Of a stretch of DNA of 64,000 nucleotides, positions 1 through 38,904 are shown in pieces (within the stretch, counting starts at the first letter, position 1; the number at the start of each line of letters is the position of its first letter). The notes under the pieces are model-generated. The model worked only from the letters and a program-made list of their open reading frames with translations. It did no database searches and was not told the origin of the DNA. The stretch is from Sphaerolaimus hirsutus (taxonomy: Eukaryota; Nematoda; Chromadorea; Monhysterida; Sphaerolaimidae). The stretch lies in contig OZ038459.1 of NCBI GenBank assembly GCA_964036195.1, positions 23,929,206 to 23,993,205 of the forward strand, written 5' to 3'. Position numbers and translations under genes: made by a program.

Positions 1-3000
1 GTGTACCAACGTCGACGACAGCATGACGCCATCCTCGAAGTCGCCAGGCGCGGGCAACATGGTGGCGCCGTGCGCTGCGGTGTCGTTGTAGGCGCGTAGC
101 AGTCCGTTGTACGCCGCCACTGAGTTGGCCTGAATGAGCTGGCGATGCCCGCGGAACACTGTTTCCAAGTGAACCACGGGACATAGTTGGTATTGTGTGA
201 GCCTATCAATGAGGGTGGGGTCGGGTTTCAGGACAGGCTCCACCCAGTCTTGCACGCGAATCATACGCGTCAATTGTTTACTGTCTCCAAATAGAAGTAG
301 CATGCCGTTCACTGGGAGCTGAGCCGCCTGAACCACGCTAATTACTGCAGCGTCAGACGCCAAAGACGCTTCGTCAATAATTACCGCACACGCAGTCACA
401 CTTTTTATACGGGCGTCGTGGGCGGAGTCTAAAGTGACATGGATTTGACCGGGCTGCACCACCTCCAAGAACACCCGGTGCAGCCTGACCGTAGCCCTGA
501 CATATTTAGACAGCGCCCTACGCAGCACCTTACCCCAAAATCCCTGATCAGCTAAACTAGCCTCACCAGCCCGGGCGCCCGCCACGCCTGCCTCGAAGTC
601 GTCGAATGGCTGCTCGTCTCCATCGTCGGCGGTGAGAAAGGGCACCTGTTCGGTCAGCTGCGCGCGTATGACGGCGTCGTCCGTGCAGTTGTTGATGATT
701 TCGTCCACCAGTTCGTAGTCCTTCTTGGCGCCGTCGTACTTTTCCAGCGCTGCCGTCCATTCGGGGCTGAGGCGGACGATGTTGTGGCCGGTTCGCTGTG
801 CTAGGGTGTGCAGGGTTGGCAATTGGGTCGCGGGGGTGGTGTTATAAGTGGGGTCAGTTTCCCACATGGGGCTCAAAACGCGCACCGGAAATGCCGCTCT
901 TAATTTCAAAAATTCTTCAAAACCCTCCAGTTTTTGCATTTCAGAAAATGGCGTATCAGCCATAGCGGTCCATTTCGCGCGTTCCCGCAACAAAACTTCT
1001 AAAGCCCCAAAAATATCCCGCTGCCCTAATTTATTCAGATTGGTCAGGGCCCTGCGCGCGCCTTCGTCGGCCGCCGAGTTGACCGTGCACGTGATGAGCG
1101 TCGAATGGTATTTGGCGTTCGGCTGCTTGTCCGATGGCAAGTCGGAGCCCGCGCGCACCCTGGGTCTCGAGTTATAATAATTATAGCCGCGTGAACACAC
1201 ATACGCCAGTTGATTTTGTGTGGTCGTCTTCCCGGACCCGAAAGGCAAGTCACACATAATCAAAAGGAATTTGCGCATTCGCACGGCTGTGATCACAGCT
1301 CCTAAAACTTCTACCTGCCCCTGCTGCGGCAAAAACTCACCTAATTTGGCCTGAATCATTTGTTCATTTTTTCCTCTGAACAATGATTCGTACAACTCAT
1401 TAGCCTCGCGGCTAATGAGCGCCCAGTCAGTTTCGTCATCCAGCAGACGCAAATTCAATATCACAGCTAATTGGATTTGCGCCTCCAGGGTGAGTACTTT
1501 TGACCCCTGAACCACTTTTGGCACCCAGCCGACCGGCGCTTTGTTCAGGGCGGCTTGCAGTGACCGCATGGTTCGGTCGTAATTGGGCGAGTCGTTTGAG
1601 CCGCGCACCATGTATCTTCCACTCTCCAGGGTTCGGGGCAGTGCTGATTGCGACGCCGCCATGTCCAACTTCGCACGCAGCATTGTAGTGGTTGGCTCTG
1701 ATTCCACGCTGGTAATTCTGACTGATAGATTGGGGCTGCCCGCCGCTGGTTTGTCTTCGTCCGGTCTGGCCAGCACCAAGCTCAACACCGACATGGGCGT
1801 CGCCTGGTTCAACAGCTGTGTCTGCGTGTTCACCTGCTCCAGCAAACGCACGCGCTGCTCTTCTGGTCCTTCGAAAGTGTCAGCTTGCAATTCTTCTGGG
1901 TCCGGGCGGCGCACCATAATATCGCATGCAGTGCCCTGCGGCGTGTGCTCCCAGGACACATGTGCGCACACATCCGTTGCGCGTTTCGCACGAAACCGCA
2001 AAAATGACTCGTTATAGCAATGGGCCGCTGCTAAAATGCCCAATTTATACCTGAGAAACGCGTCCATGTTGTCTCGGTTTTCTGTGTCTGGCTGGATGCC
2101 CGATGTGCTGATATCCTCGGCCGTGGCGACCTGCAGCCCGTACGCATGGCCGTAGAATTCGTCGCCAAACACGTCCAGATCATTCAAGTCGTGATACTCG
2201 ACGTGGGCCAGCCCCAACTGTCCCGCACTCAAATTTTCCACTCTACTGTCACTTACATATTCTCTGTGTAAGATGACCAACTTTTCCGGCCCGGCATCGC
2301 CCCGCTCCGCCGCGCCCAGCGGTTCCAGATTTTTGTAATTCGACGGCGTGAAGGCCGCTCGCAGCCGCGCCGTTTTCCAGTCGCCCGTGTAGGGCTGGTA
2401 GCCGGAAGTGTCGCCGCGCGTCAATGTACGTGCCTCTTGAGTGACGCGCCGCGTGCCCTGCGTACTCACGACCACGGGGGCGGCAACGTTTAAGGGGCAC
2501 TTTGTCTGATTACCCCATATCGCGACGCCGGTAAACTCCCAGAACCGGGGATTTTCTATTTTTTGTGCGATTGCGGTCGCCGAGAAACGCATCCCGTGGC
2601 GCACCAGGGGCAGGAACATCGAGGGGTGTTGTTTCTGAATTCTCGCGCACAAATCCACCAGCTGGGTGGTCCGTTTGTCCCTAGCCGCCTTGGCCCGCTT
2701 ATTCGAATAATAAAAATACGGATAGGCTTCATCCGCATTCACCCACTGCTTGTTTTCGCTGAGTATCGCCATCGTCTGCTCAGAAATTCTCACATGGCAC
2801 TGATACTCAACATGCCCGTCGGCGCCCGAGTCAATATACACCCTATCTACCCAACCTTCGAATTTCCCTCTGCTGGGGTAGATTTCCGGTCCATTTTGCA
2901 TCTGCTGCGCGCGGTAAAGTTGTCGCGGGGGAATGGTTCCGCCGCCGCAGGCACCATGTGTATTTGTCTCCTTGGATTTAATGGGCGGGGCGTCTGCACC

Positions 3001-3033
3001 TTCAAATGGGCGTTTGCGGGAGGCCGAAGCCAT
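1..3033 (-). CDS. ORF3: superfamily 1 helicase-like protein (C-terminus off window)
   Basis: This minus-strand frame is open for 1011 codons without a stop and leaves the window. The ATG at 3033 is the first after an in-frame stop at 3061-3063. About 590 N-terminal residues are unrecognised. A P-loop follows (GSGKTT, residues 599-604), then a Walker B motif with DEAS (D887, E888), a motif III-like GDSKQL (916-921), and about 50 residues later an ET-FRG block followed by YNGLLR. That order fits SF1 helicases, closest in pattern to the Upf1-like/AAA_12 group; a viral-type SF1 helicase is the alternative. The expected role is NTP-driven movement on RNA or DNA. The N-terminus has a short basic stretch (SRKRP). 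It lies 225 bp past the stop of ORF2, same strand, with similar GC-rich codon use, which supports membership of the retroelement. Helicases are not standard LTR-element genes. Confidence 0.85.
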   Translation of the reverse strand, partial: MASASRKRPFEGADAPPIKSKETNTHGACGGGTIPPRQLYRAQQMQNGPEIYPSRGKFEGWVDRVYIDSGADGHVEYQCHVRISEQTMAILSENKQWVNADEAYPYFYYSNKRAKAARDKRTTQLVDLCARIQKQHPSMFLPLVRHGMRFSATAIAQKIENPRFWEFTGVAIWGNQTKCPLNVAAPVVVSTQGTRRVTQEARTLTRGDTSGYQPYTGDWKTARLRAAFTPSNYKNLEPLGAAERGDAGPEKLVILHREYVSDSRVENLSAGQLGLAHVEYHDLNDLDVFGDEFYGHAYGLQVATAEDISTSGIQPDTENRDNMDAFLRYKLGILAAAHCYNESFLRFRAKRATDVCAHVSWEHTPQGTACDIMVRRPDPEELQADTFEGPEEQRVRLLEQVNTQTQLLNQATPMSVLSLVLARPDEDKPAAGSPNLSVRITSVESEPTTTMLRAKLDMAASQSALPRTLESGRYMVRGSNDSPNYDRTMRSLQAALNKAPVGWVPKVVQGSKVLTLEAQIQLAVILNLRLLDDETDWALISREANELYESLFRGKNEQMIQAKLGEFLPQQGQVEVLGAVITAVRMRKFLLIMCDLPFGSGKTTTQNQLAYVCSRGYNYYNSRPRVRAGSDLPSDKQPNAKYHSTLITCTVNSAADEGARRALTNLNKLGQRDIFGALEVLLRERAKWTAMADTPFSEMQKLEGFEEFLKLRAAFPVRVLSPMWETDPTYNTTPATQLPTLHTLAQRTGHNIVRLSPEWTAALEKYDGAKKDYELVDEIINNCTDDAVIRAQLTEQVPFLTADDGDEQPFDDFEAGVAGARAGEASLADQGFWGKVLRRALSKYVRATVRLHRVFLEVVQPGQIHVTLDSAHDARIKSVTACAVIIDEASLASDAAVISVVQAAQLPVNGMLLLFGDSKQLTRMIRVQDWVEPVLKPDPTLIDRLTQYQLCPVVHLETVFRGHRQLIQANSVAAYNGLLRAYNDTAAHGATMLPAPGDFEDGVMLSSTLVH

Positions 3034-3258
3034 TATAATTATAATAATGTGATAAAATAATTAGTTGCGAAGTTTTATGAACGGGGAAAGTAACAAGAAC
3101 TCGTGCGGTCCAGTTGCCCGTGGGCAAAAGGGGTGCACGAGCTTCCTAAAAAACACACACACTTTCACACACACTTCATACCTGTTGTTCCTGGTTTCGT
3201 GTTGTTTGACGCGACGGCGATGATCGTAACGGCTAATTAATCAGCTAATTAATCAATT
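3034..3258 (-). other. Spacer between pol ORF2 and helicase ORF3
   Basis: A 225-bp non-coding gap separates the ORF2 stop from the ORF3 ATG. It contains CA-rich runs near 3155-3175 and a short TAATTAATCAGC-type direct repeat near 3231-3255. I see no clear splice acceptor or promoter. How ORF3 is expressed (spliced RNA, internal promoter or reinitiation) is not shown by the sequence. Confidence 0.5.
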
Positions 3259-6018
3259 TTAGTCGTCGCCGTATAATTCACTGTAAGAAGGGGGAATTAA
3301 ATATTCACTGGTTGCCTTGCAACGATCTGCATGAACTACATAAATTTTCTTATTAATATTGTTGAATAAAGTCACTAATGGGTGGGCATAATCAATGCAC
3401 TCATACGGGCCGATAAAGCGAGGCGCGAATTTCTTACTAGGGCCCGTCAACTGAGTAATACGCGGCGTGTATACGCGTACCGCTTGCCCGCGTTGCACAT
3501 TCAATCGGCGCGCACGGCGATTGGCGTAAAATTGCTCCTTTTGCTGCGCCTTTGCTAAAGCGGTGTGCGCTGCTTCGCGTGCGGTGGTCAGACGCGCGCC
3601 TAATTCATTTATAAGAGCGCGCTTATGCGGCAATGAGGGCAATGCCTCGTTGTCAGGGGGAGGCTCGATCATACGCTCCCACATGGACGCAGCAGGCTTG
3701 CCAAATAGCAACGCATAGGGGGTGGTTTGCAAGGAAGGGTGTTTCGATGTATTGTACGCGTGTACAGCGGCGCCTAAATGTATGTCCCAATCGTCATGTG
3801 TACGATTTACGTAGTGTGATACTATTTCCATCAGAACACCATTCCTACGTTCCACCATTCCGTTGCTCTTGGGGGTGTACGCAAATGATGTATGTTGGGT
3901 CGCGTTCAAATATTGTAGAAGCTTGGCAAAAGTGCCCTCGGTAAAGCTAGGGGCGTTATCACTGAGTATAATGGCCGGCACACTAAATATAGGCAAAATG
4001 TGCAACAGAAATGCAAATGATACTGTGTCTTGTTTTATGTCGGGAACGGGCACAGCAATTCCAAAACGTGTGCACTGATCAACAAATACTAACACATGTC
4101 GGTTTCTGCGTTTCGTGGTTAGTAAAGGTCCTATTGCGTCTACCGCTATCACATCACCTGGCCTTTTGGCTACCTGGCGGCACACCATTTGAGTTCGCAT
4201 TGCCGCTCTGAGACCTTTCTTGGCGTTGCACGAAGGGCAGGTGGCAACCCAGCGCGCACTTTCTGGCCGCATTCCTGGAAACCACGCGAATTCCTGTAAT
4301 CTTTCAAATGTTTTTATTATTCCTAAATGGCCCGCCGTAGGGTGATTGTGAGCTAATTCTAACACGAATGGAACTAATTCCGACGGAATACATACAGGGT
4401 CGTATAATTGTATACCTGGTATTTGGGACGTTCCCGCCTGGCGACGTAACAAACCGTATTGGTCAATAAAATACGGCGCGGCGCTGTAAAAATTATCTGC
4501 GCGACATACTTCTATAGTTGTGGCTATGTACGGTTCTTCTGCTTGTAGTCGCTTCAATTTGTCAACCGAAGTCATTGGAGGTAGTGCCATAATTGTACTG
4601 CACTTGCTTACACTCGTCAAACCCGGAACAACTTCATTTCCGGCTCCTGAACCACCAGCCATTGTTCCGGTTCCAGGCGCTTCCGCATTCCGCTGCCGCT
4701 CTCGCAGCCCGGGTGACTCCGCCTCTTTTCGCCCGCGCGTCCGGTCGCTGATTGGTCGCAGTAACTCCGCCTCCTCGTTTGCGCCACTTCGTTCGCTGAT
4801 TGGCTGGTACGCTGCCCTGCGCGCCGCAGCTACCGTAACCTGCTTATCGTGCGGGATAGCGATTTCACGGCACGTAACTTGTGCAAACTGCTCAAAAGCC
4901 TCATCCAGGTCCTTTTTCTCGTCAAATACCACTGGTGCGTCTTGTCTTCTAGACAATGCATCAGCTAGTTCATTGCTTTTTCCCCTCAAGTGTTTGAACG
5001 TGATTTGGTACGGCGTAATTGCTAACGCGAACTTGTGTAGCATGGCGTGCGGGGTAGTCTCTAAATTAGGATTTTTTACCCACGAAATACTCTTGGCGTC
5101 GGTCCAGACTTCAAAGGGCCGTCCCGCCAAATAACAATGCCAGTTACGTATACTTTCGTAGATTGCACATGCTTCTAGTGAAATTGCTGGCCATTTGCTT
5201 TGGGTTGCACCTAACTTCCGGCTGTAAAAGGCACATGCATGTAGTATTTTCTCGTCCTCTGCTCGTTGTGCCAGCACGCCTGCAACAGCAATTTTAGAGG
5301 CGTCCGTGATAATTATAAACATACGTTTAGGATCGGGAAATTGCAGACATGGGCTTCCTAACAATGCTTCCTTGAGCTTATGGAAAGCTTCCAGTGCCTT
5401 GGGTTTCGATGTCAAATCCACCGGGGTGTCGCTATTGTAATTTTCTCTTGGTCCCGTACGCGTGAGATTTGACAAGGGTACAGCTAGCTCTGCGCATCTG
5501 TGAATCATGCGTCTGAAAAAACCGATAGCTCCCAGAAATCCTTTTACCTCTTTTACGGTAGTGGGTACCGGCCAGTCCTGAATTATGTGCCGTTTATCAT
5601 CTGGTACGCACACGCCGTCACGGCCAATCATAAATCCTAGAAAGCGTACAGCTGTGACGCGTGCGAAAAAACACTTTTTCGGACTAATTTTGAAATTATT
5701 CCTAATTAGTCTTTCTAACACCTGTCCTATGTCATATAAATGGGTTTCCCAGGTTGCACTATAAATTAGTAAATCGTCGATGTATAGTAACACATTTCGA
5801 TGTATCAGACCGGCCATGGCTAATTCAAAACAGCGTTGCGCTAAGCTAGGTGAGCATTTTAATCCCATTGGTAAACGTTTCAGCTGAAATTGTCCAAAAA
5901 CATTTCTAAATGACGTGATGTGTCGATCGTCTGGATGCAAAGCAATGTTATAGAAAGCTTGATTTATATCGGCACTGCTAAAAATACTTGCAGCTACATA
6001 AAGATTCAACTGTTTCAT
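3259..6018 (-). CDS. pol: ORF2: reverse transcriptase (main part), RNase H, integrase
   Basis: The frame has 919 codons from an ATG at 6018, but the true N-terminus is probably supplied by ORF1, because RT homology starts upstream in the other frame. RT palm: ADIN near 16-19 and YIDD at 79-82. RNase H: D239 (TDAS), E282, D307 (WTDAK) and D353 (LADALSRR). Integrase zinc finger: an H pair at 559/564 with C594 and C597. Integrase catalytic triad: D627, D687 and E723, with exactly 35 residues between the last two. A GPY-like module follows (IGPY near 869). All catalytic residues are present, so this half looks functional. Residues 400-470 between RNase H and integrase are R/E/G-rich and low in complexity. 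It overlaps ORF1 by 41 bp in the +1 frame. Confidence 0.93.
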   Translation of the reverse strand: MKQLNLYVAASIFSSADINQAFYNIALHPDDRHITSFRNVFGQFQLKRLPMGLKCSPSLAQRCFELAMAGLIHRNVLLYIDDLLIYSATWETHLYDIGQVLERLIRNNFKISPKKCFFARVTAVRFLGFMIGRDGVCVPDDKRHIIQDWPVPTTVKEVKGFLGAIGFFRRMIHRCAELAVPLSNLTRTGPRENYNSDTPVDLTSKPKALEAFHKLKEALLGSPCLQFPDPKRMFIIITDASKIAVAGVLAQRAEDEKILHACAFYSRKLGATQSKWPAISLEACAIYESIRNWHCYLAGRPFEVWTDAKSISWVKNPNLETTPHAMLHKFALAITPYQITFKHLRGKSNELADALSRRQDAPVVFDEKKDLDEAFEQFAQVTCREIAIPHDKQVTVAAARRAAYQPISERSGANEEAELLRPISDRTRGRKEAESPGLRERQRNAEAPGTGTMAGGSGAGNEVVPGLTSVSKCSTIMALPPMTSVDKLKRLQAEEPYIATTIEVCRADNFYSAAPYFIDQYGLLRRQAGTSQIPGIQLYDPVCIPSELVPFVLELAHNHPTAGHLGIIKTFERLQEFAWFPGMRPESARWVATCPSCNAKKGLRAAMRTQMVCRQVAKRPGDVIAVDAIGPLLTTKRRNRHVLVFVDQCTRFGIAVPVPDIKQDTVSFAFLLHILPIFSVPAIILSDNAPSFTEGTFAKLLQYLNATQHTSFAYTPKSNGMVERRNGVLMEIVSHYVNRTHDDWDIHLGAAVHAYNTSKHPSLQTTPYALLFGKPAASMWERMIEPPPDNEALPSLPHKRALINELGARLTTAREAAHTALAKAQQKEQFYANRRARRLNVQRGQAVRVYTPRITQLTGPSKKFAPRFIGPYECIDYAHPLVTLFNNINKKIYVVHADRCKATSEYLIPPSYSELYGDD
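5975..5992 (-). other. ORF1/ORF2 junction: +1 frame change inside RT
   Basis: Reading on the minus strand, ORF1 ends with a Phe codon and a TAG inside a run of five T. RT homology continues without loss in the +1 frame immediately after it. A P-site tRNA-Phe on UUU could re-pair with UUU one base on, with a stop codon in the A site, which is the usual logic of programmed +1 frameshifting. A one-base indel in the T run would look the same. Confidence 0.5.
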
Positions 6019-9000
6019 CTAAGCGGGGTAACGGGAATTGGGGAGCGTGCAAAACAGCGTTCAGGCGTCTGTAATCAATTACCATCCGCTTTGATCCATC
6101 CGGTTTGGATACCACCAGCGTGGGGGCACAATACGGGCTCGTACTGGGTTCCACGATGTCGTGCTCAATGAGGCATCTCAAATGATTTTCTAAATATTGC
6201 TGATCATCCAGACTCAACCGGTACATTCTGCATGCAATTGGTTTTTTGTCCACTAATTGCAACCGGTAGTCCACTAATTCGCTGTAGCCGATGTCATACT
6301 TATGTCGGGCAAAAGCTTCTTTGTATTGCAGAATCACCTTTTTCAGTTCCTCTCTGCGTTCGTCCGTCAATGTTTCTGGCACGGTAAATTCCATCACGTG
6401 TCCATCTGGACATGCAACTTGCAGTGGAGGTCCTAATTTGTCTTCGGCTACTTTGGGGGGGGGTTCAGTCGCTTGAACCTGTCGACACACATCTCTGTCA
6501 TAGCACTGCTTCACCCATTCAGCGGGGGGGCCTCCAGGTTTCACCTTCAGCACGCAGTCCACTGGTTCGACCACTGCAATGCGCTGTCCTACCTGTAGCA
6601 CTACGGGCTGGTTTCGTACATTTGCACATCTCACCTGAAACACGGGGGCACTGGTTTCATACGCCGCTGAAGCAGCCATAACTCCACAGCGTTCGCCTAC
6701 CGTATCCAATCCCATGACTGTGAATAACTTTTCATCCATGGGGGCAGATAATTTCGCCGTCACTAGCGCTTCATGTCTAGCCAGAATTTCTATTTTTTCG
6801 TTCACAATGGCGTAAATTCTGCGTTGCTGCACTTCCGGGTCGGGGTTGTCAAAAGGAATTATCGCGTTAGCCGTAGGGATTCGTAGTTCTCTTGCAGGTA
6901 GGTCTACTACCATGTGCCGCAGGACGTCTGCGCCAATTAAAATTTCACCTGCTAATCCGTTCACTGCCTGAAACACAATTCCGAAGGTGTGGTTTCCCAT
7001 GGTTACCGGTACTTCCATTTGTCCCAATACCAAAAGTTTCGAGTCTGCTGCACACCTAAGGGCTCCAATAGGTGAAACTTCATCATGCTTAGTAGCCTTT
7101 TCCTTGTGTCGCATCAGCACGTCTCTGTTGCATAATGAACGCATGGCGCCTGTGTCCAGTAGACATCTTCGATATTCTCTCCCATCAATGGTTATGGTAA
7201 TGGATGGGCTGTAGTACACATGCACAATCTCTTCACGTCGATTGGCTACTTGATGGATGTTGTCTCTTTCTTCCGTCGAGAAAGTGATCATGCACACCGA
7301 TTCTTCTTCCAGATCGCATTTTCTGTTGATACTGTATTGTATAGCGGGAAAACGACGCGCGCCCGTGAGTGCGGGTATGCCACTTGGCATTCCCACGCAC
7401 GGGTTAATTACCGTTCTTACCTTTACCTGTTCGCTAGGGCGGTCCTCAGCCAATTCGACAATGATATTGGACTTTTCTTCTGTCTTTGGTCGCCTTTTGA
7501 TTTTTTCCTTTGCCCTGTTCACCAAAGTCACGGCCGTTTCCGGCGCTGCAGCCATGAGCGCGGCTAGTAAATACTGCATGGTGACCAGTGCACATATCAG
7601 ATAGATCCATACTTGTAGCCAGGTGCGCCAGGTGTCAAAATCCCACCATCCCAGCGCTAGGACCGATTTTGCCAAGGTTCGATGCCTTTGCATGTGTGAT
7701 TCCACCCTCGGCTCCGCCCCCTGCGTAATTTGCCGCACGATTGAATATGCATGCCATACGTCATTCAGGGTGGTCGTCGGCAATAATTCGGACAAGTTGT
7801 ACATAGTCGTGGCGGCAAAAATCTGATGATGCACATCCCTGACCTTTTCCTGTTGCCATTTCTGCGGGAAACTGTGTGTGTTATACATAGGTAAATGTTC
7901 CAGGCCGCCGACTTCCGGCAGATATTTGTACCACTGTCCATTTAACATTACCACACGATTGTGCGCATTGGTGCATGAGCCCGGGATCGCTTGAAAATGC
8001 AAAATGTTTGTCAACCTATTCATGTGCAACGTCACATTCTGCCCGTGTACACTAACTTGCACAGGTACTGTTTCGTAGCATTCTGGAGACTTCTTCTCTT
8101 TCATGATCTCGTATGTTTTTACCGCAAAACATTTGTGAACCAAAAATCCGTCCGGCGCGGGTTTGGCAATTATTTCGTTATCATTCATGTACCATCGGGC
8201 TGTTGTAGTTGCGTGTTCGCTCATAGCCAGGCGCACAAATTCTTGGAAGTGTTGCACATTCTTGCAGGTGGCTACGGCCTGTGCGCGCATGGTTTGTTCT
8301 GCTGTTTCGTATACCGCCTGCATGCTGGCTGCTAATTGGCCTGCGCTCACTATTCCCAGCGTGGGTCGACCTTGCGCTCGTTTTTGTCTGACGCTTCGAA
8401 TCACTGCCTTCTCAAATGGCGCCACTACAATATCCTGGTCCGATTTCCATAATTTAATGCCGCATGACTCAACCTCTTCATGGGCTCTGAAAGACAATGA
8501 TAGCGTATGATCATCGGCTAGCCAGATATCCTGTCTAATGCGTCCATGCATTTCACGCCATTTTTCATAGGGGCATTCCGCCTTCGGGTTCGGTTTCCAT
8601 GTTAATTGGCTGCCGTCTTCTAGTGTGCATGCACCCATTTCATAATTGCACTTACTAACATCACCCAGCGTGCTTTGCATGGTGTTGGCTCCATATCTCA
8701 TTCGTACTTCCCCTCGAAACAGCCCACAGTGTGGCGTCGTTTCACTCACCCATTTGCAGCAGTACAGTCCATGTCCTGAGTAACTAACATTGGTGGGGTA
8801 TTGAGTGTCCCATGCGTTGTCCAAATCACTCACAGGGGTCATGGGCCCATTGTTGCACTTGTGATATTTAATCATGCCTTCGCACTCGGCGGCGCCCACA
8901 GATCGGGGATTAGAATCAAACTTTTCCATCGTGACGTCGCCCCAGAAGTTCTGATACGTCTTTGCCGTTCTGATAGAGGCCACACACCTGTGTGCTGCCG

Positions 9001-12000
9001 CACGATATTCTACCATATTTCGCTTGTAGATTGTCAGTGTCAATTTTCGTGGCCGTTCTAATGACGCCGTAGTGTCAACAATAGCCGTGCAATTGGGTAG
9101 GGGGGGGTACGTGTATAAATCGTAGTGATCCGTCAAGTCACTGCAGAGCAGTGGAAACGAGGGCATGGTAGTCGCGCCCGCGCCCGGCAAAAAGGCTAAT
9201 CCCATTATAATTAATCCAACTGCCAATACGAAAAACAGCGACTGTGCGACCTGAGGCATGTAGGGGGGTTCTGAATATGCGCGCGGCGCGGGGCGCACCC
9301 CTTCCTCAGTAGACAGAAAACCCATATACCTGTCTACCTGGTTGCTGGAGCCAGTACGTGGCGGCAGGGCGGCCGGCGTGGCGTACAAAAACGGGTCCAG
9401 ACTGATGTTCATGAGCACGTCCAAGGGCACCTCAGTCAGCGTGTCCGAGTGGTCGTCTGCAGGGCAATTAGGCCACAGCGTACAGTCCGTTTCCCTCAAA
9501 TCATGCATTCCGATCCTGCGTAAGAAGGCCAGCCAAGTAGTTCGAAACAAGTAACCTTTTTCAGTTCGCATGTATGCCCACGGTTTGATCCAGAATTCCC
9601 GCTCCTGCGCGAGCACATGCATTCCAGTAGTGCGCTGCTGCTCTTCGGGTGACTCTGGAACCAGTTCGTCAGGTTCCTCATCCTCTAATTCCAAGCCTTG
9701 CATCACAGGGATTAATTTATTAACGGGACGTATCATCATGCAGCGATCATCTTCGCGCACATGCATGGTCATTCCAGTCGTACTGGACACTCGCGTGGGG
9801 TTCAGCGACTCTACGTGGGGGTTACTTACCTGTACCGGTTGCATGTTATATTGTTGCATGCGCCCATCCGGTCCCATAGCCATCCAGTTAGCTGGCGGCG
9901 TTTGATAAGCCATCATTTGCGGTTGCATGTTCATATCGCCAGCCCTCTGTACCGTCTGCGCTGGTTGTACAGGCATCGGCTGCGCTGGTTGCCACTGCGG
10001 ATATGCGTATTGCATGGGCACCATACCTGGCTGCATCGCTTGGGCTTGATTATTTCCCTGATAGCCACCACGTTGTCCTCCGCCGCGCCCACGTCCATTT
10101 CCTCTGGATGCTCCGCCGCCGCGGCTCCTTTTGAAATACTGTTCCCTTTGTTCTGGGGTTAGTTTGGGGCACTCATATCTGATATGCTCTTCAGAGCCAC
10201 ATTCCCAACATCCTTTGTCAAATTTTCGTGGGGGCAATTTAGGGGGGTCCCTATTCAATCCCAAAAGTTTACCTTCCAACGCGCCCAGTTGCGCTAATTT
10301 CTTCGCTATCTCTTGGTGCACAGAGTCGAATTTGGCAACACTCTCAGTCATTTTCTGTTCCATTGTCTCTAACGTCTTGTCGGCCTGGGACGGCAGTCCA
10401 GCCATGGCGGGCATGTTTAACGCCATCAACCTGTCCATTACCTTGTCTGTAGCGCTGGCAACCACATCCTGTTTGGATTTTTCTCCCTTATTCTGGCTCT
10501 GTTCTGCTTCCAGAAAGCTTTCTTGTGCGCGTGCATTGTCAACCATCTCTTTCCAAGTGATAGACGCCGTGACAGGTACATTGCGCCGAATTTCATTTCT
10601 CAGCCCTCCATGAAATTTTATCATGCATGTGTCACCTCGTTTTTCATGACCCATGCCGGGATAGGCGCGTTTTATCAACTTTTCCAAACGCACCGCCCAT
10701 TCCAGTACCGACTCATCTGCGCCCTGTCGCGTCTCAAAAATCTCTCTCTGTGCATGATGTTTGTCATTCGGATGTTCATAGAACTTTTCCAGTGCTTGCA
10801 TCATGTCCTTGTAGTTCAGGTCGCGCAATTCTCTGCATCGAGTGTTGAAAATGGCTCTGGCACTGCCTTTCAAAAACAATTTTACCAGCGGCTTCCGCTC
10901 CTGTAATTTTATGCGCAGCGCATCACATACCGTATCCCAGCTCCTTCTCCAGTCCCTGAAACCCTCATTTGGTTTGCCGCGAAAATATCCACATTGCTGT
11001 GCTAGGGCTGTAATGACCGCCGCATTGCTTTGTTCTAATTGCCAATTTTGTCCCGGATCTGTAGGCCGCGCCACTTCAGATGTAGCCGACGAGCTCCTGG
11101 AGGATGCTGGCGAACGGGATCGAGCGCGCCGCTGCGTAACAGTTCTCACCTGGTTCGTTCCAGCTGCCGACGGGGGCGCCGCTGGTGCCGTTGATGACTG
11201 TAAGGGCGCTGCTTGACCATTGGTCAGCACTATCGGCTGCTGGCCACTGGCCGGTGAGTTTCCTCCCAGCGTCGCATTCTGATTTTGTAAGGCTTGATTA
11301 TGCTGCTGGTACGCAGTCGTCAGGTCAACTATATCGTCACCATGTACGCTGTGGTGCGCTTCGAATTCCTGCAAAAAATGTTCCACCCTAGGTACCTCGG
11401 CGACTGGGTCACTTCCCCATAAATTCATAGCAATTTTAATTAGTGTCACCATACGCAAGTCCCCTGGTTCACCACCATTCTGTGAGAAAGCACCAACCGG
11501 TCTCGCCTGACTCATCATGTTTGCCCATTTCTTCGCAGCTGCACATGCCTTTTTAGGTGTCCATTGTGCACAGGTTGGCGTTGTTTGCACCGGGTCCAGA
11601 TCCATTATGGTAGCTTGGTAAATTAAGTCCGCATTAGTGACCTTTGCGTACCTGTCTTCCAGCGCCGGAGCCGCCGTCTGGTTTGCGCCATTGTTTGTCA
11701 TTCTGCTAGCGGGACTGCTAATAATTATCACGGGGGGATTACTTGAAATTTCAGTCTTAATTAACTGGCGTCTAGCCTTTGCAGTTGCACTCTGCGATCT
11801 CGACTGGTCGCTCGATAAATTCCGACTGCTGTTACCTGACACGTCTCTCGGCGTCGAAGTGCTCTTTGGTGGGCTTAACTGCAGCGCCGGGGAAGTGTAT
11901 CCGCTCTGCGCCGCTGTCTCCAGTAATTCCGCTACGGTATTTTCAATCACGGGAAATTGATCTGCAGTAGCTCCAAGCTCAGCTGCAATCACAGGGTAAT

Positions 12001-12577
12001 CACGTTGAATCGACGGCTGCCCTAGAGGCTCGCTGTCACCAACGTATCCGTCTGAACCGACTTCAGAACCCGATCGCACTCCAGGCGATATGGATGAGCT
12101 GCCCGCGCTCCAACCCAGTGTCCTCCGAAGCTTAGACCACTTACCTGTCTTTCCTGCTTCCTTTCCTGCAGCTTGTCTGCTTGTCCCAGGCGCTTCTTCA
12201 GTTTCTGCGCTGGACGTTAGCTGCCGTGCCGCTGCCGGTACAGCTGGCGTCTTCCACTGACTAAAACTGTCTGGCGCAGGCCCTGCGCCTTCAACCGTTG
12301 ATAATCTGATTACCGGGGTGTCCTCAGCTGTCTGTCCAGACCAGCGTTGACTTTCACTCTCCTCTAGCGCTTCCGGCGCTTCTGTTTCAGGGTTAACCGA
12401 ATCGTTCGACTCACTGTCTCCTGCTTGACTCTCAGCTGCAGCAAGTTGTGCGTCCACTTCTTGCCCAGCCTTCTGTTGTCGCGCGCGCCTTCGTGCTTGT
12501 TTTTGCTTCTCCAATGCAGCGTGCCAAACTTGTTCTATGGTGTCCCCTTGTAAGCTTGCTGGCCCCCTCGATCTCAA
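5978..12577 (-). CDS. gag-pro: ORF1: Gag / glycoprotein-like / aspartic protease / RT N-terminus polyprotein
   Basis: This is a single 2199-codon frame. Residues 1-290 are S/E/A-rich and predicted disordered. A Gag core lies at about 515-690. A coiled-coil-like stretch (700-770) and a CCHC knuckle follow (C790, C793, H798, C803). Residues 815-925 are G/R- then Q/P/M-rich. A hydrophobic segment (1112-1132) opens a Cys-rich, N-glycosylation-bearing block with a furin-like RQKR at 1397-1400 and a transmembrane segment near 1655-1677. A retropepsin with DTGA (1808-1811) and the first RT motifs (2130-2199) complete it. No in-frame ATG exists before residue 293 (genome 11701), yet the frame is open back to a stop at 12632. 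So either translation starts at a non-AUG codon (TTG at 12577 is used here) or at 11701. The stop falls inside the RT palm, where ORF2 takes over. Glycoprotein before protease is an unusual order. Confidence 0.9.
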   Translation of the reverse strand: MRSRGPASLQGDTIEQVWHAALEKQKQARRRARQQKAGQEVDAQLAAAESQAGDSESNDSVNPETEAPEALEESESQRWSGQTAEDTPVIRLSTVEGAGPAPDSFSQWKTPAVPAAARQLTSSAETEEAPGTSRQAAGKEAGKTGKWSKLRRTLGWSAGSSSISPGVRSGSEVGSDGYVGDSEPLGQPSIQRDYPVIAAELGATADQFPVIENTVAELLETAAQSGYTSPALQLSPPKSTSTPRDVSGNSSRNLSSDQSRSQSATAKARRQLIKTEISSNPPVIIISSPASRMTNNGANQTAAPALEDRYAKVTNADLIYQATIMDLDPVQTTPTCAQWTPKKACAAAKKWANMMSQARPVGAFSQNGGEPGDLRMVTLIKIAMNLWGSDPVAEVPRVEHFLQEFEAHHSVHGDDIVDLTTAYQQHNQALQNQNATLGGNSPASGQQPIVLTNGQAAPLQSSTAPAAPPSAAGTNQVRTVTQRRARSRSPASSRSSSATSEVARPTDPGQNWQLEQSNAAVITALAQQCGYFRGKPNEGFRDWRRSWDTVCDALRIKLQERKPLVKLFLKGSARAIFNTRCRELRDLNYKDMMQALEKFYEHPNDKHHAQREIFETRQGADESVLEWAVRLEKLIKRAYPGMGHEKRGDTCMIKFHGGLRNEIRRNVPVTASITWKEMVDNARAQESFLEAEQSQNKGEKSKQDVVASATDKVMDRLMALNMPAMAGLPSQADKTLETMEQKMTESVAKFDSVHQEIAKKLAQLGALEGKLLGLNRDPPKLPPRKFDKGCWECGSEEHIRYECPKLTPEQREQYFKRSRGGGASRGNGRGRGGGQRGGYQGNNQAQAMQPGMVPMQYAYPQWQPAQPMPVQPAQTVQRAGDMNMQPQMMAYQTPPANWMAMGPDGRMQQYNMQPVQVSNPHVESLNPTRVSSTTGMTMHVREDDRCMMIRPVNKLIPVMQGLELEDEEPDELVPESPEEQQRTTGMHVLAQEREFWIKPWAYMRTEKGYLFRTTWLAFLRRIGMHDLRETDCTLWPNCPADDHSDTLTEVPLDVLMNISLDPFLYATPAALPPRTGSSNQVDRYMGFLSTEEGVRPAPRAYSEPPYMPQVAQSLFFVLAVGLIIMGLAFLPGAGATTMPSFPLLCSDLTDHYDLYTYPPLPNCTAIVDTTASLERPRKLTLTIYKRNMVEYRAAAHRCVASIRTAKTYQNFWGDVTMEKFDSNPRSVGAAECEGMIKYHKCNNGPMTPVSDLDNAWDTQYPTNVSYSGHGLYCCKWVSETTPHCGLFRGEVRMRYGANTMQSTLGDVSKCNYEMGACTLEDGSQLTWKPNPKAECPYEKWREMHGRIRQDIWLADDHTLSLSFRAHEEVESCGIKLWKSDQDIVVAPFEKAVIRSVRQKRAQGRPTLGIVSAGQLAASMQAVYETAEQTMRAQAVATCKNVQHFQEFVRLAMSEHATTTARWYMNDNEIIAKPAPDGFLVHKCFAVKTYEIMKEKKSPECYETVPVQVSVHGQNVTLHMNRLTNILHFQAIPGSCTNAHNRVVMLNGQWYKYLPEVGGLEHLPMYNTHSFPQKWQQEKVRDVHHQIFAATTMYNLSELLPTTTLNDVWHAYSIVRQITQGAEPRVESHMQRHRTLAKSVLALGWWDFDTWRTWLQVWIYLICALVTMQYLLAALMAAAPETAVTLVNRAKEKIKRRPKTEEKSNIIVELAEDRPSEQVKVRTVINPCVGMPSGIPALTGARRFPAIQYSINRKCDLEEESVCMITFSTEERDNIHQVANRREEIVHVYYSPSITITIDGREYRRCLLDTGAMRSLCNRDVLMRHKEKATKHDEVSPIGALRCAADSKLLVLGQMEVPVTMGNHTFGIVFQAVNGLAGEILIGADVLRHMVVDLPARELRIPTANAIIPFDNPDPEVQQRRIYAIVNEKIEILARHEALVTAKLSAPMDEKLFTVMGLDTVGERCGVMAASAAYETSAPVFQVRCANVRNQPVVLQVGQRIAVVEPVDCVLKVKPGGPPAEWVKQCYDRDVCRQVQATEPPPKVAEDKLGPPLQVACPDGHVMEFTVPETLTDERREELKKVILQYKEAFARHKYDIGYSELVDYRLQLVDKKPIACRMYRLSLDDQQYLENHLRCLIEHDIVEPSTSPYCAPTLVVSKPDGSKRMVIDYRRLNAVLHAPQFPLPRLDETVESLCSCKYF
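7480..9250 (-). other. Envelope-glycoprotein-like block inside ORF1
   Basis: Residues about 1110-1700 of ORF1 look like a type I membrane glycoprotein. There is a hydrophobic leader (1112-1132), then about 20 cysteines. Sequons are visible at N1162, N1263, N1514 and N1594. A dibasic RQKR site at 1397-1400 is followed by a mildly hydrophobic Gly/Ala stretch. A tryptophan-rich membrane-proximal region (1644-1656), a 23-residue transmembrane segment and a basic cytoplasmic tail end the block. It could mediate budding or membrane fusion. The Cys and Tyr pattern of the first 130 residues reminded me of glycoproteins that insect and crustacean retroelements have taken from negative-strand RNA viruses (chuvirus type), but I could not test this. 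The class of fusion protein is unassigned. The frame is intact with no stop. Confidence 0.7.
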
Positions 12578-12692: not shown

Positions 12693-14374
12693 TGTCAGAT
12701 ATTTTACGTTTTTACTAATTTTACTATTTTCCGTTTTTACCACAAAAATACGCCACTCGTCGAATTTTGCCGCGGCAGAGAATTGCAAATTCCGGTCCCT
12801 TTGCGCTTCCACTTGCGTGCTTAATTAAATAAATAATTGGTTTTATGGTACGGGGATGTTTACACGCAAATCAGGAACGGCGCCAGTACCCCTTGGGGTC
12901 CTGACAGTTCCTGAGGACGGACACGGCAACTTACCAATCCCTTTCGTAACTGCTGCCAGCGGTTTACTTCGATTAATTGTTAAAAAGCCGTAATTAATGA
13001 AAAGCCGAAATTAATAAAATTCAAATTAAAATTCAAGCAGTTAGTATGCTTCAGGGGGACCAAGTTGGTTTTCACGGGAACTTTATTTAGCGATATAGTC
13101 AGAGTCAATTTCACAATAGCTCAAGTGAGTCGTATAGCCTCTAGTGGGTGAAAAAATGTAAAATCAGCGCGTTTTATAATCACTAAAATCTACCATAAAC
13201 GAAATGAATACTAAATCAAAGACACAACAATTAACCATAATAAGCGAATCAATAAGGCAATTTCAATGATCACTGGAAAACCGTAAACATAATGTACAAG
13301 GCACAAGTAAATTAATTAAATGCGGGAAAATTATCTAATTAAATAAAGCGGGTAAAATATGGGTCAAACCAAGCGTAAAGTAACTGTAATTACCAATGAC
13401 GTAATTAAAACACAATTTATCTCATAGGTGAGTGTCGGGAACTGGGTTTCTATTCAGAGGTTACGGTACAGTCGAGAGCAGGTGGTGTGACACGTGTTAT
13501 CAACCTGCGCCCCTTTAGGTGGAAAATATTTTTATAGCGCGCCCGACCAAGGCCGCAGAAAGAACGCTCATTTGCGGGGGTTTGTTCAAGGTTATTGCAT
13601 TGCCGGGTAAGGGTTGGAACTTTGGGACTAAACACACGCCACAAAACACTAGCACTTGTGAGTTCACCAATCACCCTGGGTGATGGGAATAATTAATTGG
13701 CACTACTGTGCTCTTCACTGTAAACTGTGCTCTGCATGTGTCTTGCAGTCGCATGCCGACAATAATTGCCGTTTGCCACTTTTCCACCCATTACCTAGTC
13801 CTAAGTAAAAAGCACTTGGTCGGGGAATTTTCTGAATGTTATCTATCGGGGCGACTAAGCATTTAACAGAGTTAACACCTGTTAGCTTAACTAGAAACAT
13901 AAAAACCTTTCTAAATCATTCCCAGACACTGCCCCCTTTTAACTAAAATGTAAACTTGATAAAAACCTAATAATTATGACGTTCGACAGTACATATTGGG
14001 AAAATGCAAAAAGAAAAACGAGAGTAATCACTTAATTAACTCAAAATGCGGGTAACCTAATTAGTTTAATTAATGAATCACTAAAATAAAAATTAAAAAT
14101 TAGCGTCACACGGGAAGTAATTAAATAATTAACGGAAAAGAAACAATTAATAAATTCATGGCCGCAGTAGTGTCCATTCGGGCGTACCGTCCTGGGGCTG
14201 CGGCTTCGTTGGCGGATTTGCAGTGCACAGCGAACCGCACGTTCACTGTGACTTCCCTGTGCACCGCGGGTCGTCATTCGGTCGCACATGGTCGTTCTCG
14301 AGTCGTCGGAGTGTCTGCACAAAAATTGTCGTTACGTTTTTACGCATGATTAGTTAGCCATATTTCTACCTACA
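12693..14374 (-). repeat. 5' LTR of the large element (1682 bp)
   Basis: On the minus strand it starts TGTAGGTAGAAATATGG and ends ATCTGACA, giving TG...CA termini. The boundaries come from comparison with the solo copy at 26380-28014, which carries a 4-bp duplication. It is long for a gypsy-class LTR. It has no coding frame of its own; the open frames near 14041-14349 have no recognisable product and are just sequence shared with the solo LTR. Confidence 0.85.
13531..13536 (-). promoter_or_regulatory. LTR TATA box
   Basis: A TATAAA on the minus strand in a GC-rich setting (GCGCTATAAA) is conserved in the solo LTR at 27197-27202, where a polyadenylation AATAAA follows 75 bp later. This is the probable U3/R region. 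Confidence 0.55.
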
Positions 14375-14690
14375 AATCTGCATGTTGTGCTGATCATTTT
14401 AAGTGTTGAACGATTGAAATCGGCCCAGAAATGTTCAAGTTATTAAGCTTCAAAGTCAACGTGCAGATCGACCACACAAAATGACCACCTATTTATAGAC
14501 CCCCCTTATCTCGGGACTGGGGATTATTCGAGCAAACCAAAACAATTTGTCATAGCCCAGACCCCAAAACCCTACATACTAGAAGGGCATCAAAATAGGC
14601 CGATGTACAGCAGAATGGGACGCAGGAATGTGCATTTCTATGAAATCACAAAAAAACATACACTAATTAGTTACACCCTAATATTTATTT
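14375..14690 (+). repeat. Dispersed repeat, copy 1 (target of the large element)
   Basis: This stretch matches 25090-25390 in the same orientation. Shared landmarks include ATCTCGGGACTGGG and GGGACGCAGGAATGTGCATT. The large element begins exactly where the match begins here, so it inserted into this older repeat. There is no coding content. Confidence 0.75.
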
Positions 14691-15208
14691 ACATGCCAGA
14701 GGATAGATGAAGGCGTGCCGCAAAATACTCGAGAAAAAATACTCGCAAATCTAATAAATGTATTGCACCCACTTTTTCATTTTTGGAACAAACCGTTTTT
14801 TACTCTGTATGACGCTCTCATGCAGGATATTTATGCTATTTGCGTCTGCTATCCATCTCTTTGTTCACACCGAAGTTCTCCATGATACACTACATCGAGC
14901 CAAACAGAAATTGGCCACACGTGTCCATTCAAAAGCGGATTACCCCAAAAATGCCTGTGAACTTACCGCCACATGTATTGAAATACTATACATCAATTTT
15001 GTATGTGTATCGTTAAGTATTTCCCTGTATTGCGGCTTGCGAGTCGACATATTGGCTTTAATAATGACACACAATGGCTTTAATAATGACACATTTTTCT
15101 ATGACCGTTTTGGCTTTAATGTCGCTATACTTTGGCTTACCTAGCGAGGTAATTTGGCTTTACAGTCGATGGGTTAAATATCGTGTAGCTTTAATCTCGC
15201 TATACTCT
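14691..15208. other. Non-coding AT-rich stretch
   Basis: No gene is seen. At 15050-15140 the phrase TGGCTTTAAT recurs about four times with ATGACA-like spacers, a short degenerate direct repeat. Confidence 0.5.
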
Positions 15209-15673
15209 CGTGTGGATCATGCAACGGGTCTACAACTTTCTAAGGATAATGTATGAATCAATACCTTAATCGTGTCCAATACTGAGTGTTATCAGCCACA
15301 ACTAGAGCGAATTGAAAAATTCAATTTTTATCATTTCACGTCATCATCATTTCACGTCACAGTGTCAGGGAACAACTTGACATTTCACGTCAGACTATTG
15401 CAAGCAGCAGTCTGACGTGAAATGTCAAGTTGTTCCCTGACACTGTGACGTGAAATGATGATGACGTGAAATGATAAAAATTGAATTTTTCAATTCGCTC
15501 TAGTTGTGGCTGATAACACTCAGTATTGGACACGATTAAGGTATTGATTCATATATTATCCTTAGAAAATTGTAGACCCGTAGCATGATCCACACTCGTG
15601 TAATTAATTTCACGACGACATTTCACGTCATCATTTCACGTCGAATAGACGCTGAGCTCTAATTCCCGCTTAA
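15209..15673. mobile_element. TTAA-type short element rearranged into a large palindrome
   Basis: Two arms, 15209-15396 and 15409-15598, are near-perfect inverted copies around a spacer of about 12 bp. The right arm continues into the terminal sequence of the family seen intact at 44675-45036 (ending CGCTGAGCTCTAATTCCCGC followed by TTAA at 15670-15673). The left terminus is missing. The GACGTGAAATG motif recurs in both orientations. It codes for nothing. Confidence 0.8.
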
Positions 15674-17439: not shown

Positions 17440-17890
17440 CATAAAGTGGCGTTTACACTGCATTTTGTGCCGACAAAAAAAGAAGACAAAAAGTTTCATA
17501 ATTCCACAATAAAGTTCCATATCTGCAAGACAAAGCAGTGAAGTATACTCACTAGTTAAGTGCACACACATGCCAATTTGCAGATAATTCGGGCATGTGG
17601 TTCACGACTTGAAAACAAATTACATTTGTCGGTTCGGTTTTCGTTTTGAAACCGAACCGACAAGTGTAATTTGCTTTTAACTCTTGAACGACACACGCAT
17701 ATTATCTGCAAATTGGCATGTGTGTACACTTAACTAATGAGTATACTTCAGTGCCTTACCTTGCAGATATGGAACTTTATTCCGGAATTATGGAACTTTT
17801 TCACTCGTTTTTTTGTCGGCACACAAAACCGTGTAAACGCCGTTTTAGGCAGTGTTTACACGGATTCTTTGTGACGACAAAAATTACGAT
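17440..17890. mobile_element. Foldback element 1
   Basis: The halves 17440-17650 and 17655-17890 are inverted copies meeting at the short palindrome GGTTCGGTTTTCG...GAAACCGAACC. The inner arms share GCAGATAAT, CATGCCAATTTGCAG and GTATACT phrases in opposite orientation. The ends carry GTTTACAC motifs shared with the neighbouring foldback. Confidence 0.75.
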
Positions 17891-19700: not shown

Positions 19701-20223
19701 AGTGGGGTGAGTGAAAAGAAAAAAAAATTACATTTAAATGATCATATCTCGTCAAAAATTCAAGTACATAGACTCACAAATGCACCAAATGTGTGTGCAG
19801 CAACATCAATTAGCCACTTGCCAGTCACATGGCTCAGATGCCCATACCAGCCATCTGGAGTTGGCCATTCCTGTGGATTTTTGCTGAGCAATCATTGAAT
19901 TTAAATTGAGAGGACCTTATTCTCATGAAAATAGTACCCACTTTTACATACTCGCTTTTACATTTTCTGTGGAAAAAGTACTTGATTTTACATTAACATG
20001 GAAAATAAGTATTTTACGCACATGAATTCATGGGTACAGGTCAAAAAGTATTTTACATTTTCTGTACTCAGGGTGAGTAAAGAAAAAGCAATTTACATAT
20101 AAAGAGAAATGTTAGGGCTACATTTTGATGTGGGTTGCCGCTGCAAATTTATTCCATGGCTTAGAAAAAACAGCTGGAAAATTTTGAAAAATAAATCCCA
20201 TTATTTTTGTCTGGCTCATTACA
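19701..20223. other. Non-coding stretch
   Basis: I see no gene and no repeat boundary. TTTTACATT-type words recur at 19940-20065. Confidence 0.4.
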
Positions 20224-20925
20224 AATCACAGCAAAAAATGGGTGTGTGGATGCGTGGTGAAGCGTCATGAAGTGTCTTCATGCCAACGCTTCCCGACGCC
20301 TCACAAAGCACGCTAGCACTTCCGCACACATCATGAAAATCTGAAGACACTTCACGCTTTTTAATATGGCACTGGCATGCAAATGTATGTGTTAGTGAAG
20401 CGTGTGGAAGCGCTAGCACCGTGAAGTGTCTTCCACGTGTTTGGATGCGCTTGAAGCGCGCGGTGAAGCTAGGTGAAGCGTGTGGAAGACACTTCACCCA
20501 GAATCTGTTGGTGGAAGCGTGTGGAAGCGCCAGCACCGTGAAGTGTCTTCCATGTGTTTCGATGCGCGTGAAGCGTGCGGTGAAGCTAGGTGAAGCGTGT
20601 GGAAGACACTTCACCCAGAATCTGTTGGTGGAAGCGTGTGGAAGCGCCAGCACCGTGAAGTGTCTTCCATGTGTTTCGATGCGCGTGAAGCGTGCGGTGA
20701 AGCTAGGTGAAGCGTGTGGAAGACACTTCACCCAGAATCTGTTGGTGGAAGCGTGTGGAAGCGCCAGCACCGTGAAGTGTCTTCCATGTGTTTCGATGCG
20801 CGTGAAGCGTGCGGTGAAGCTAGGTGAAGCGTGTGGAAGACACTTCACCCGGAATCTGTTGGTGGAAGCGTGTGGAAGCGGGACGCTTCCATGCGCTTCA
20901 AAAGCCCATTTTTTGCTGTGAATGC
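20224..20925. mobile_element. Short element with 16-bp terminal inverted repeats and internal minisatellite
   Basis: The ends CACAGCAAAAAATGGG (20229-20245 area) and CCCATTTTTTGCTGTG (about 20906-20921) are exact inverted copies. The interior is a GTGGAAG/CTTCCAC-rich region whose core is the 117-bp tandem repeat listed separately. I could not read a target-site duplication. Confidence 0.65.
20395..20880. repeat. 117-bp minisatellite, about four copies
   Basis: Units start at about 20395, 20511, 20628, 20745 and (partial) 20862, spaced exactly 117 bp, with very few differences between the inner copies. Each unit holds GTGAAGTGTCTTCCA and its inverse. Because 117 is 39 codons, frames stay open across all units on both strands. 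I take this as a by-product of the period, not as a protein. Confidence 0.9.
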
Positions 20926-21296
20926 TTTTGAGAATGTTCAGCAATTATACCTTACTCTGCCTCGCCCAGCCCACCACTCACCTCACAGTACAGTATCCAA
21001 GTAAGTGGTAAGCGTGCCATTACGGCGCTGTTCCTACGTATTAGCATGAAGCAAGAATTCATCCACACGCGGGCATCTTCTATAATATTTAGAGAAACAA
21101 CTTTGCCAATTTGCGCCTCACACCACTGCTCCATTTCGGACTTTTTCAACGATGACGCTCTTTCGAACTGTAATCCTGCTGCAATGTGGATTTTTGTAAA
21201 TAAATTTGCAAATCACATTTGGCACCCAAATTTTTTTTCATTTGGGGTGCTCCATTGTGTGGGTGGGGTTTGAAAGTCGAAACTTGGTGGGTATAT

Positions 21297-38894: not shown

Positions 38895-38904
38895 GCCTTT
38901 TGAG

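What the first reader, a model, noticed from the sequence alone, without database searches (positions are those of the whole stretch)
1..3033. SF1 helicase ORF downstream of integrase in an LTR retrotransposon
P-loop GSGKTT, DEAS and GDSKQL motifs occur in a frame open for over 1000 codons, same strand, 225 bp after the pol stop. LTR elements are not known to me to carry a helicase; rotifer LTR elements do capture extra 3' ORFs with enzymatic domains, which is a precedent for capture but not for this gene. Roles in unwinding RNA or evading RNA surveillance are possible.
Basis: partly seen in the sequence, partly recalled or inferred. Interest (0 to 1): 0.88.

Follow-up and report, generated by a model that had tools for sequence, protein, structure and literature searches.

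The report
Retroelement carrying its own RNA helicase
A retrovirus-like mobile element in an unnamed eukaryotic genome carries, between its integrase and its end repeat, a full-length gene for a putative RNA-unwinding enzyme related to Upf1, and in the copies examined that gene is held constant by selection about as strictly as the integrase next to it.

Summary
Confirmed and extended. Window 1-3033(-) is the first 1011 codons of a 1323-codon ORF3 that ends left of the window, still inside the element: the second LTR lies 582 bp beyond its stop. The element is about 17.6 kb, Ty3/gypsy type, LTRs 1683 bp with 3 differences, 4-bp TSD. ORF3 is a Upf1-like SF1 helicase (AAA_12 88.4 bits, cut-off 27; Viral_helicase1 13.6, cut-off 21). 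Of 35 copies listed 30 were fetched: 30 of 30 follow pol, 29 of 30 precede an LTR. Their dN/dS is 0.047, against 0.042 for the integrase end of pol in the same copies. Closest precedents seen: insect retroelements with viral SF1 helicases, and planarian Burro elements, for which the section read names no helicase. What the helicase does is inferred: most likely it acts on the element's own long RNA.

The parts
1..3033 (-). ORF3, codons 1-1011 of 1323 (the rest lies left of the window, stop at C15:23928267); Upf1-like SF1 helicase
1219..1245 (-). P-loop PFGSGKTTT (residues 597-605)
   Evidence: same in 30 of 30 fetched copies
364..375 (-). DEAS (residues 887-890), Walker B
   Evidence: same in 29 of 30 fetched copies (L023 has DKAS)
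274..288 (-). GDSKQ (residues 916-920), motif III by recall
   Evidence: same in 30 of 30 fetched copies
3034..3258 (-). 225-bp spacer between pol stop and ORF3 start; donor-like CAGGTATG in 29 of 30 copies, T-run AGG in 22 of 30
   Evidence: splicing not tested
3259..6018 (-). ORF2: RT (from the middle), RNase H, integrase H2C2 and rve core
   Evidence: Ty3 Gag-Pol is the best PDB match, E 2.3e-56
5978..12577 (-). ORF1: Gag, Env, protease and the start of RT in one frame; 2199 codons from the first start codon (TTG)
10646..10885 (-). Retrotrans_gag match in ORF1
   Evidence: 27.5 bits, cut-off 24.1
10169..10210 (-). CCHC zinc knuckle
   Evidence: motif; Pfam below cut-off (16.2 vs 20.8 bits)
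7538..9262 (-). Env-like glycoprotein: N-terminal hydrophobic stretch, RQKR site, C-terminal hydrophobic stretch; Monjiviricetes_fusion match at 7910-8683
   Evidence: 29.6 bits, cut-off 27
6914..7201 (-). retropepsin-like protease, DTGA at about 7156
   Evidence: 15.7 bits, below cut-off 28.2; motif
12693..14375 (-). 5' LTR (element sense); its partner is C15:23926002-23927684, left of the window; 1683 bp, 3 differences; TSD GATT

Best explanation
A Ty3/gypsy-type, envelope-bearing LTR retroelement has made a Upf1-like SF1 helicase one of its own genes. Shown: ORF3 lies between pol and the 3' LTR in a multi-copy family whose window copy is young (3 LTR differences); it keeps the helicase motifs; its amino-acid sequence is constrained about as strongly as the integrase end of pol. 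Inferred: ORF3 is made from the element's RNA (perhaps a spliced mRNA) as a separate protein, and its ATP-driven RNA unwinding or RNP remodelling acts on the element's own long RNA: helping translation and export of a polycistronic RNA, clearing structure and proteins ahead of reverse transcriptase, or shielding the RNA from decay. The analogy is the Upf1-like helicase of large-genome nidoviruses (recalled). Identity and selection about 0.95; RNA-level helper role about 0.45.
For: LTR pair enclosing ORF3, 3 differences in 1683 bp, TSD GATT. 30 of 30 fetched copies have pol directly upstream and 29 of 30 an LTR downstream. AAA_12 88.4 bits; best solved match 8ftm_A, deposited as 5'-3' RNA helicase-like protein (Sen1 by recall), E 2.9e-6. 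dN/dS 0.047 for ORF3 (helicase part 0.035, N part 0.054, C part 0.082), pol end 0.042, wrong frames 2.1 and 3.3. A second Gag-helicase-Env family, with 23 synonymous changes to 4 changed codons between its two copies seen.
Against: No expression or biochemical data. The 30 copies are the best of 35 listed by protein score, which favours low dN; the pol and wrong-frame controls only partly answer that. AAA_11 is below its cut-off in ORF3 (18.7 vs 27 bits); UPF1 itself is only E 0.097 by single-sequence search. The structure prediction failed (pLDDT 34), so the fold rests on sequence. No relative turned up in the protein database (word-limited searches) or in viral contigs. Pol and LTRs of the second family were not seen. 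The splice-like signals are incomplete (T-run AGG missing in 8 of 30).
Confidence: 0.55

Rival explanations
1. ORF3 protects the element's RNA from nonsense-mediated decay by competing with host UPF1: in a polycistronic RNA the pol stop is followed by more than 4 kb, which would mark it for decay.
For: Upf1-like relatedness; about 4.8 kb lie between the pol stop and the 3' LTR.
Against: The helicase part is the most constrained (0.035), so more than a passive decoy; no UPF1 zinc-binding domain among the Pfam matches; in the second family the helicase lies between Gag and Env.
Confidence: 0.2
2. ORF3 is a suppressor of RNA silencing (siRNA/piRNA), as proposed by others for SF1 helicases in insect LINEs.
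For: Hypothesis in PMC6338049 and PMC5563155 (passages) for other helicases.
Against: Those helicases are described as of positive-strand RNA virus origin; ORF3 is below the Viral_helicase1 cut-off (13.6 vs 21 bits). No test here.
Confidence: 0.15
3. Capture of a host mRNA as a passenger without use to the element.
For: Intron-free, Upf1-like; rotifer LTR elements show that extra ORFs are captured (PMC5408684, passages).
Against: dN/dS 0.047 over copies with mean dS 0.072; in 7 fetched host loci the two significant tblastn stretches are 26-28% identical over about 100 residues; a second diverged family also has one.
Confidence: 0.04
4. Host gene next to, not in, the element (assembly or boundary mistake).
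For: None beyond the window edge cutting the ORF.
Against: ORF3 lies inside matched LTRs with a TSD, and 30 of 30 fetched copies have pol beside it.
Confidence: 0.01

Closest known systems
Burro giant gypsy elements of planarians (PMC6431247, section 7 read)
   Same: gypsy-type pol; Env related to mononegavirus fusion glycoproteins, in frame between Gag and Pol; high copy number
   Different: No helicase named in that section (the paper's three uses of the word concern other elements); Burro has BIR, BCL2, ankyrin and other domains and an internal region up to 25 kb; here the internal part is about 14.2 kb and no such domain was listed for ORF1-ORF3
Insect retroelements with viral SF1 helicase (TRAS/Jockey LINEs; two Ty1/Copia fusions; PMC5563155 and PMC6338049, passages)
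   Same: SF1 helicase domain in a retroelement
   Different: There a domain fused into LINE ORFs or to Copia RNase H or integrase and of positive-strand RNA virus type; here a separate 1323-aa Upf1-like ORF in a gypsy-type element with both LTRs
Bdelloid rotifer LTR elements with enzymatic ORF3 (PMC5408684, passages)
   Same: Extra ORF3 after pol
   Different: DEDDy exonuclease or GDSL esterase, not helicase; the authors report no significant departure from neutrality within the genome, whereas ORF3 here is strongly constrained
Chuvirus-Env retroelements (Anakin in a passage of PMC12440569; PMC7642597 and PMC10084718 by listing and abstract start)
   Same: Env of the chuvirus kind captured by an LTR element
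   Different: Nothing seen of a helicase in them (PMC7642597 and PMC10084718 do not hold the word); Env sits between Gag and protease here
Cellular Upf1-like helicases (UPF1, Sen1, IGHMBP2)
   Same: AAA_12; best solved match 8ftm_A (Sen1 by recall), E 2.9e-6; IGHMBP2-family model 9e-15 but far below its cut-off
   Different: Distant: UPF1 E 0.097 by single-sequence search; intron-free ORF in an element; no UPF1 zinc-binding domain listed

Membership tests
Ty3/gypsy LTR retrotransposon | Pair of LTRs with TG...CA ends and short TSD | tested here: met
   1683 bp, 3 differences, TGT...ACA, TSD GATT
Ty3/gypsy LTR retrotransposon | PR-RT-RH-IN order with a gypsy-type RT/IN | tested here: met
   (protease below cut-off, by motif); Ty3 best PDB match 2.3e-56
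Ty3/gypsy LTR retrotransposon | tRNA primer binding site | not tested
   a TGG... stretch follows the 5' LTR by eye; no tRNA compared
Upf1-like SF1 helicase | AAA_12 (C-terminal RecA-like domain) | tested here: met
   88.4 bits, cut-off 27
Upf1-like SF1 helicase | AAA_11 (N-terminal RecA-like domain) | tested here: inconclusive
   18.7 bits, cut-off 27, in ORF3; second family 47.5 bits, met
Upf1-like SF1 helicase | Walker A, Walker B, GDxxQ and motif V/VI residues (motif names recalled) | tested here: met
   for ORF3, by eye; the second family has GSGKN instead of GSGKT/S, and its P-loop does not line up with ORF3's in the two-sequence alignment
Upf1-like SF1 helicase | ATPase and 5'-3' unwinding | not testable with these tools
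   needs purified protein
UPF1 proper | N-terminal UPF1 zinc-binding domain | tested here: not met
   no such Pfam match at E up to 1
Viral_helicase1 (RNA-virus SF1), as in insect LINEs | Pfam PF01443 over cut-off | tested here: not met
   13.6 bits, cut-off 21
Burro elements | Env in frame between Gag and Pol | tested here: met
Burro elements | BIR/BCL2/ankyrin domains and internal region above 20 kb | tested here: not met
Errantivirus-type gypsy | env as third gene after pol (recalled) | tested here: not met
   Env before protease; third gene is the helicase
Chuvirus-type Env | PF24664 over cut-off | tested here: met
   29.6 and 35.9 bits, cut-off 27

The most novel reading that the evidence does not exclude
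A lineage of envelope-bearing gypsy-type retroelements in which a Upf1-like helicase is a regular, mobile gene module. It sits after pol in one family and between Gag and Env in another, was acquired more than once or has diverged past recognition, and serves RNA genomes well above the usual size of LTR elements: the retroelement counterpart of the helicase of large nidoviruses.
Probability: 0.4. Interest if true: 0.9.

Novelty: new variant of a known kind. Interest (0 to 1): 0.82.

Why it matters
LTR retroelements are generally thought to borrow unwinding and RNP-remodelling activities from the cell (recalled). One that carries its own Upf1-like helicase, under constraint like that of its integrase, makes testable whether reverse-transcribing elements need a helicase as their RNA grows long, and whether Upf1-type enzymes are a target or a tool in the contest over transposon RNA. 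Two families with the helicase in different places suggest that the activity, not the gene position, is what is kept.

Tried and rejected
Host gene beside the element: rejected, ORF3 lies inside matched LTRs. Passenger gene: rejected by dN/dS. RNA-virus helicase: below cut-off. Troyka lineage: the word helicase does not occur in its paper's main text and it is said to encode no envelope protein. Cafeteria paper: the helicase ORFs in the passages belong to virophages. Structure prediction from the single ORF3 sequence (residues 500-1200): pLDDT 34, discarded, no fold search made. Homologue searches with ORF3 residues 550-1200, the second helicase and viral contigs: nothing at E 0.001. ORF2 search: 30 proteins, best 33% identical over 38% of the query, no close relative. 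BLASTP between the two helicases: best E 3.5. The host species was not identified.

Not finished for want of the genome tools: the AAA_12 scan of the genome, pol and LTRs of the second family, the contexts of the other AAA_11 places, and whether the ORF1/ORF2 frame break inside RT is peculiar to this copy.

Full report
What is there. The window is C15:23929206-23993205 of an unnamed 348-Mb genome in 762 contigs. On the minus strand ORF1 (5978-12577), ORF2 (3259-6018) and ORF3 (from 3033 leftwards) follow one another. ORF1 holds a Gag (Retrotrans_gag 27.5 bits, cut-off 24.1), a CCHC knuckle by motif, an Env-like glycoprotein (Monjiviricetes_fusion 29.6 bits, cut-off 27), a retropepsin-like DTGA site (Pfam below cut-off) and the start of RT; ORF2 holds the rest of RT, RNase H and integrase. 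The best solved match of ORF2 is Ty3 Gag-Pol, E 2.3e-56. In this copy RT is split between ORF1 and ORF2; whether that is peculiar to this copy was not tested.

A repeat of window 12693-14375 lies at L009:6003-7685 (C15:23926002-23927684), 1683 bp with 3 differences. The ends read TGT...ACA and are flanked by GATT on both sides (by eye). ORF3 stops at C15:23928267, 582 bp before that second LTR. So ORF3 is inside the element, after pol and before the 3' LTR. The element spans about 17.6 kb, of which about 14.2 kb is internal (from these coordinates).

What ORF3 encodes. It is 1323 aa. Pfam: AAA_12 88.4 bits (cut-off 27), AAA_11 18.7 bits (below 27), Viral_helicase1 13.6 bits (below 21). NCBIfam: IGHMBP2-family helicase 9e-15, but far below that model's cut-off (54.1 vs 348.9 bits). 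Solved structures at E up to 1: nine sequences; three deposited as 5'-3' RNA helicase-like protein (Sen1 by recall) at 2.9e-6 to 1.4e-5, then five of UPF1 and one of NAM7 at 0.097-0.44. A profile of the two families' helicases ranks UPF1 first, 1e-6. About the first 560 residues have no listed domain. Against seven fetched host loci with AAA_11 matches, ORF3 has two significant stretches, 26% over 114 and 28% over 96 residues, on C65 and C14 (UPF1-like by eye). So ORF3 is Upf1-like, but neither UPF1 itself nor a recent copy of these host genes.

Copies. The genome search listed 35 full-length matches at 99-100% identity; of 613 first-look candidates only 35 were scored, so 35 is a lower bound. 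I examined the 30 fetched (L012-L041, the window's own among them): the integrase end of pol lies directly upstream in 30 of 30 (97-100% identity over 1242 bp); an LTR lies directly downstream in 29 of 30. In L017 similarity to the window copy stops 447 bp after ORF3. ORF3 is open in 29 of 30; L033 has one TGA. L023 has DKAS for DEAS; L026 and L027, on short contigs, have identical ORF3s.

Selection. Pooled pairwise Nei-Gojobori proportions (uncorrected) over 30 copies, 435 pairs: ORF3 dN 0.0034, dS 0.072, ratio 0.047; helicase part (561-1190) 0.035; N part 0.054; C part 0.082; last 414 codons of pol in the same copies 0.042. Reading ORF3 in the two wrong frames gives 2.1 and 3.3. Ten random subsets of ten copies gave 0.039-0.057. 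Over the roughly 0.92 kb of LTR fetched, the 28 other copies with an LTR match are 91.5-97.4% identical to the window's, while their ORF3 proteins are 99%. Caveat: copies were chosen by protein score, which lowers dN. The pol end was not chosen so and agrees, but the bias is not removed.

A second family. The AAA_11 scan gave 28 matches; 13 distinct places have open frames of 944 aa or more, and none is among the 35 ORF3 places listed. I read one of the 13 in context (L042, C2:19284700-19292699): Gag (Retrotrans_gag 29.8 bits), then a 1149-aa helicase (AAA_11 47.5, AAA_12 44.0 bits, both over cut-off), then an Env (Monjiviricetes_fusion 35.9 bits) still open at the end of the piece. L008 on C7 carries the same helicase, with 23 synonymous changes and 4 changed codons over 1028 codons. 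The two families' Envs are related (29% over 385 aa, E 7e-39). The two helicases show no significant BLASTP match (best E 3.5); a forced alignment lines up DEAS with DEST, the GDxxQL motifs and motifs V and VI, but not the P-loops. So their relatedness rests on shared Pfam domains. Pol and LTRs of this family could not be fetched; that it is an LTR element is likely, not shown. Its P-loop reads GSGKN in both copies; whether it binds nucleotide is open. The contexts of the other 11 places were not seen.

How it may work. Selection on the helicase part says the activity is probably used, and the different gene position says that the activity matters rather than the place. The simplest role is on the element's own RNA, about 16 kb by inference (element less one LTR), long for LTR elements, for which a review gives a traditional limit of around 10 kb (PMC6431247, passage): unwinding and clearing for translation, packaging or reverse transcription. 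This is inference, by analogy with the helicase of large nidoviruses (recalled). Interference with NMD and suppression of silencing are the main rivals.

Compared with what is known. Nine literature searches were made in a library of open PubMed Central papers. I saw their listings: 25 of 171, 4 of 4, 20 of 96, 15 of 22, 4 of 4, 10 of 77, 12 of 53, 5 of 5 and 4 of 4 papers. No title or abstract start listed described a Upf1-like helicase ORF in an LTR element; that library lacks bioRxiv and most subscription journals. Precedents: PMC5563155 (passages), PMC6338049 (passages), PMC5408684 (passages), PMC6431247 (section 7 in full, passages elsewhere), PMC12440569 (abstract and passages), PMC8547959 (passages). 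Hence new variant of a known kind: an LTR element with a captured ORF, but with a gene and degree of constraint not seen in those.

Noticed in passing
window 26381-28014 (+): An LTR-like stretch 79.8% identical to the element's LTR: probably an old solo LTR of a related family. Its neighbourhood was not examined in detail.
   Followed up: partly
window 7538-9262 (-): Chuvirus-type Env in frame between Gag and protease, with an RQKR site and hydrophobic ends; the order reported for planarian Burro elements.
   Followed up: partly
window 5978-6018 (-): RT is split between two overlapping frames in this copy; whether other copies share this was not tested.
   Followed up: no
window 3034-3258 (-): Donor-like CAGGTATG in 29 of 30 copies and a T-run AGG in 22 of 30: possible splice signals before ORF3.
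   Followed up: partly
L042:2110-5559 and L008: Second-family helicase has GSGKN in place of GSGKT/S in both copies seen.
   Followed up: partly
window 33747-39684 (+): Another gypsy-type element in several frames: RT, RNase H, integrase zinc domain; protease below cut-off.
   Followed up: no
window 57938-64000 (+): Open frame over 2000 codons with DUF1759 and DUF1758 in its first 1000, running off the window: a BEL/Pao-type element by recall.
   Followed up: no
window 15203-15602: Near-perfect palindrome: arms of 199 nt, 96% complementary, 2 nt apart; another at 17442-17847 (85%).
   Followed up: no
window 20219-20944 (-): Open frame made of repeated units, probably a tandem repeat rather than a gene.
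   Followed up: no
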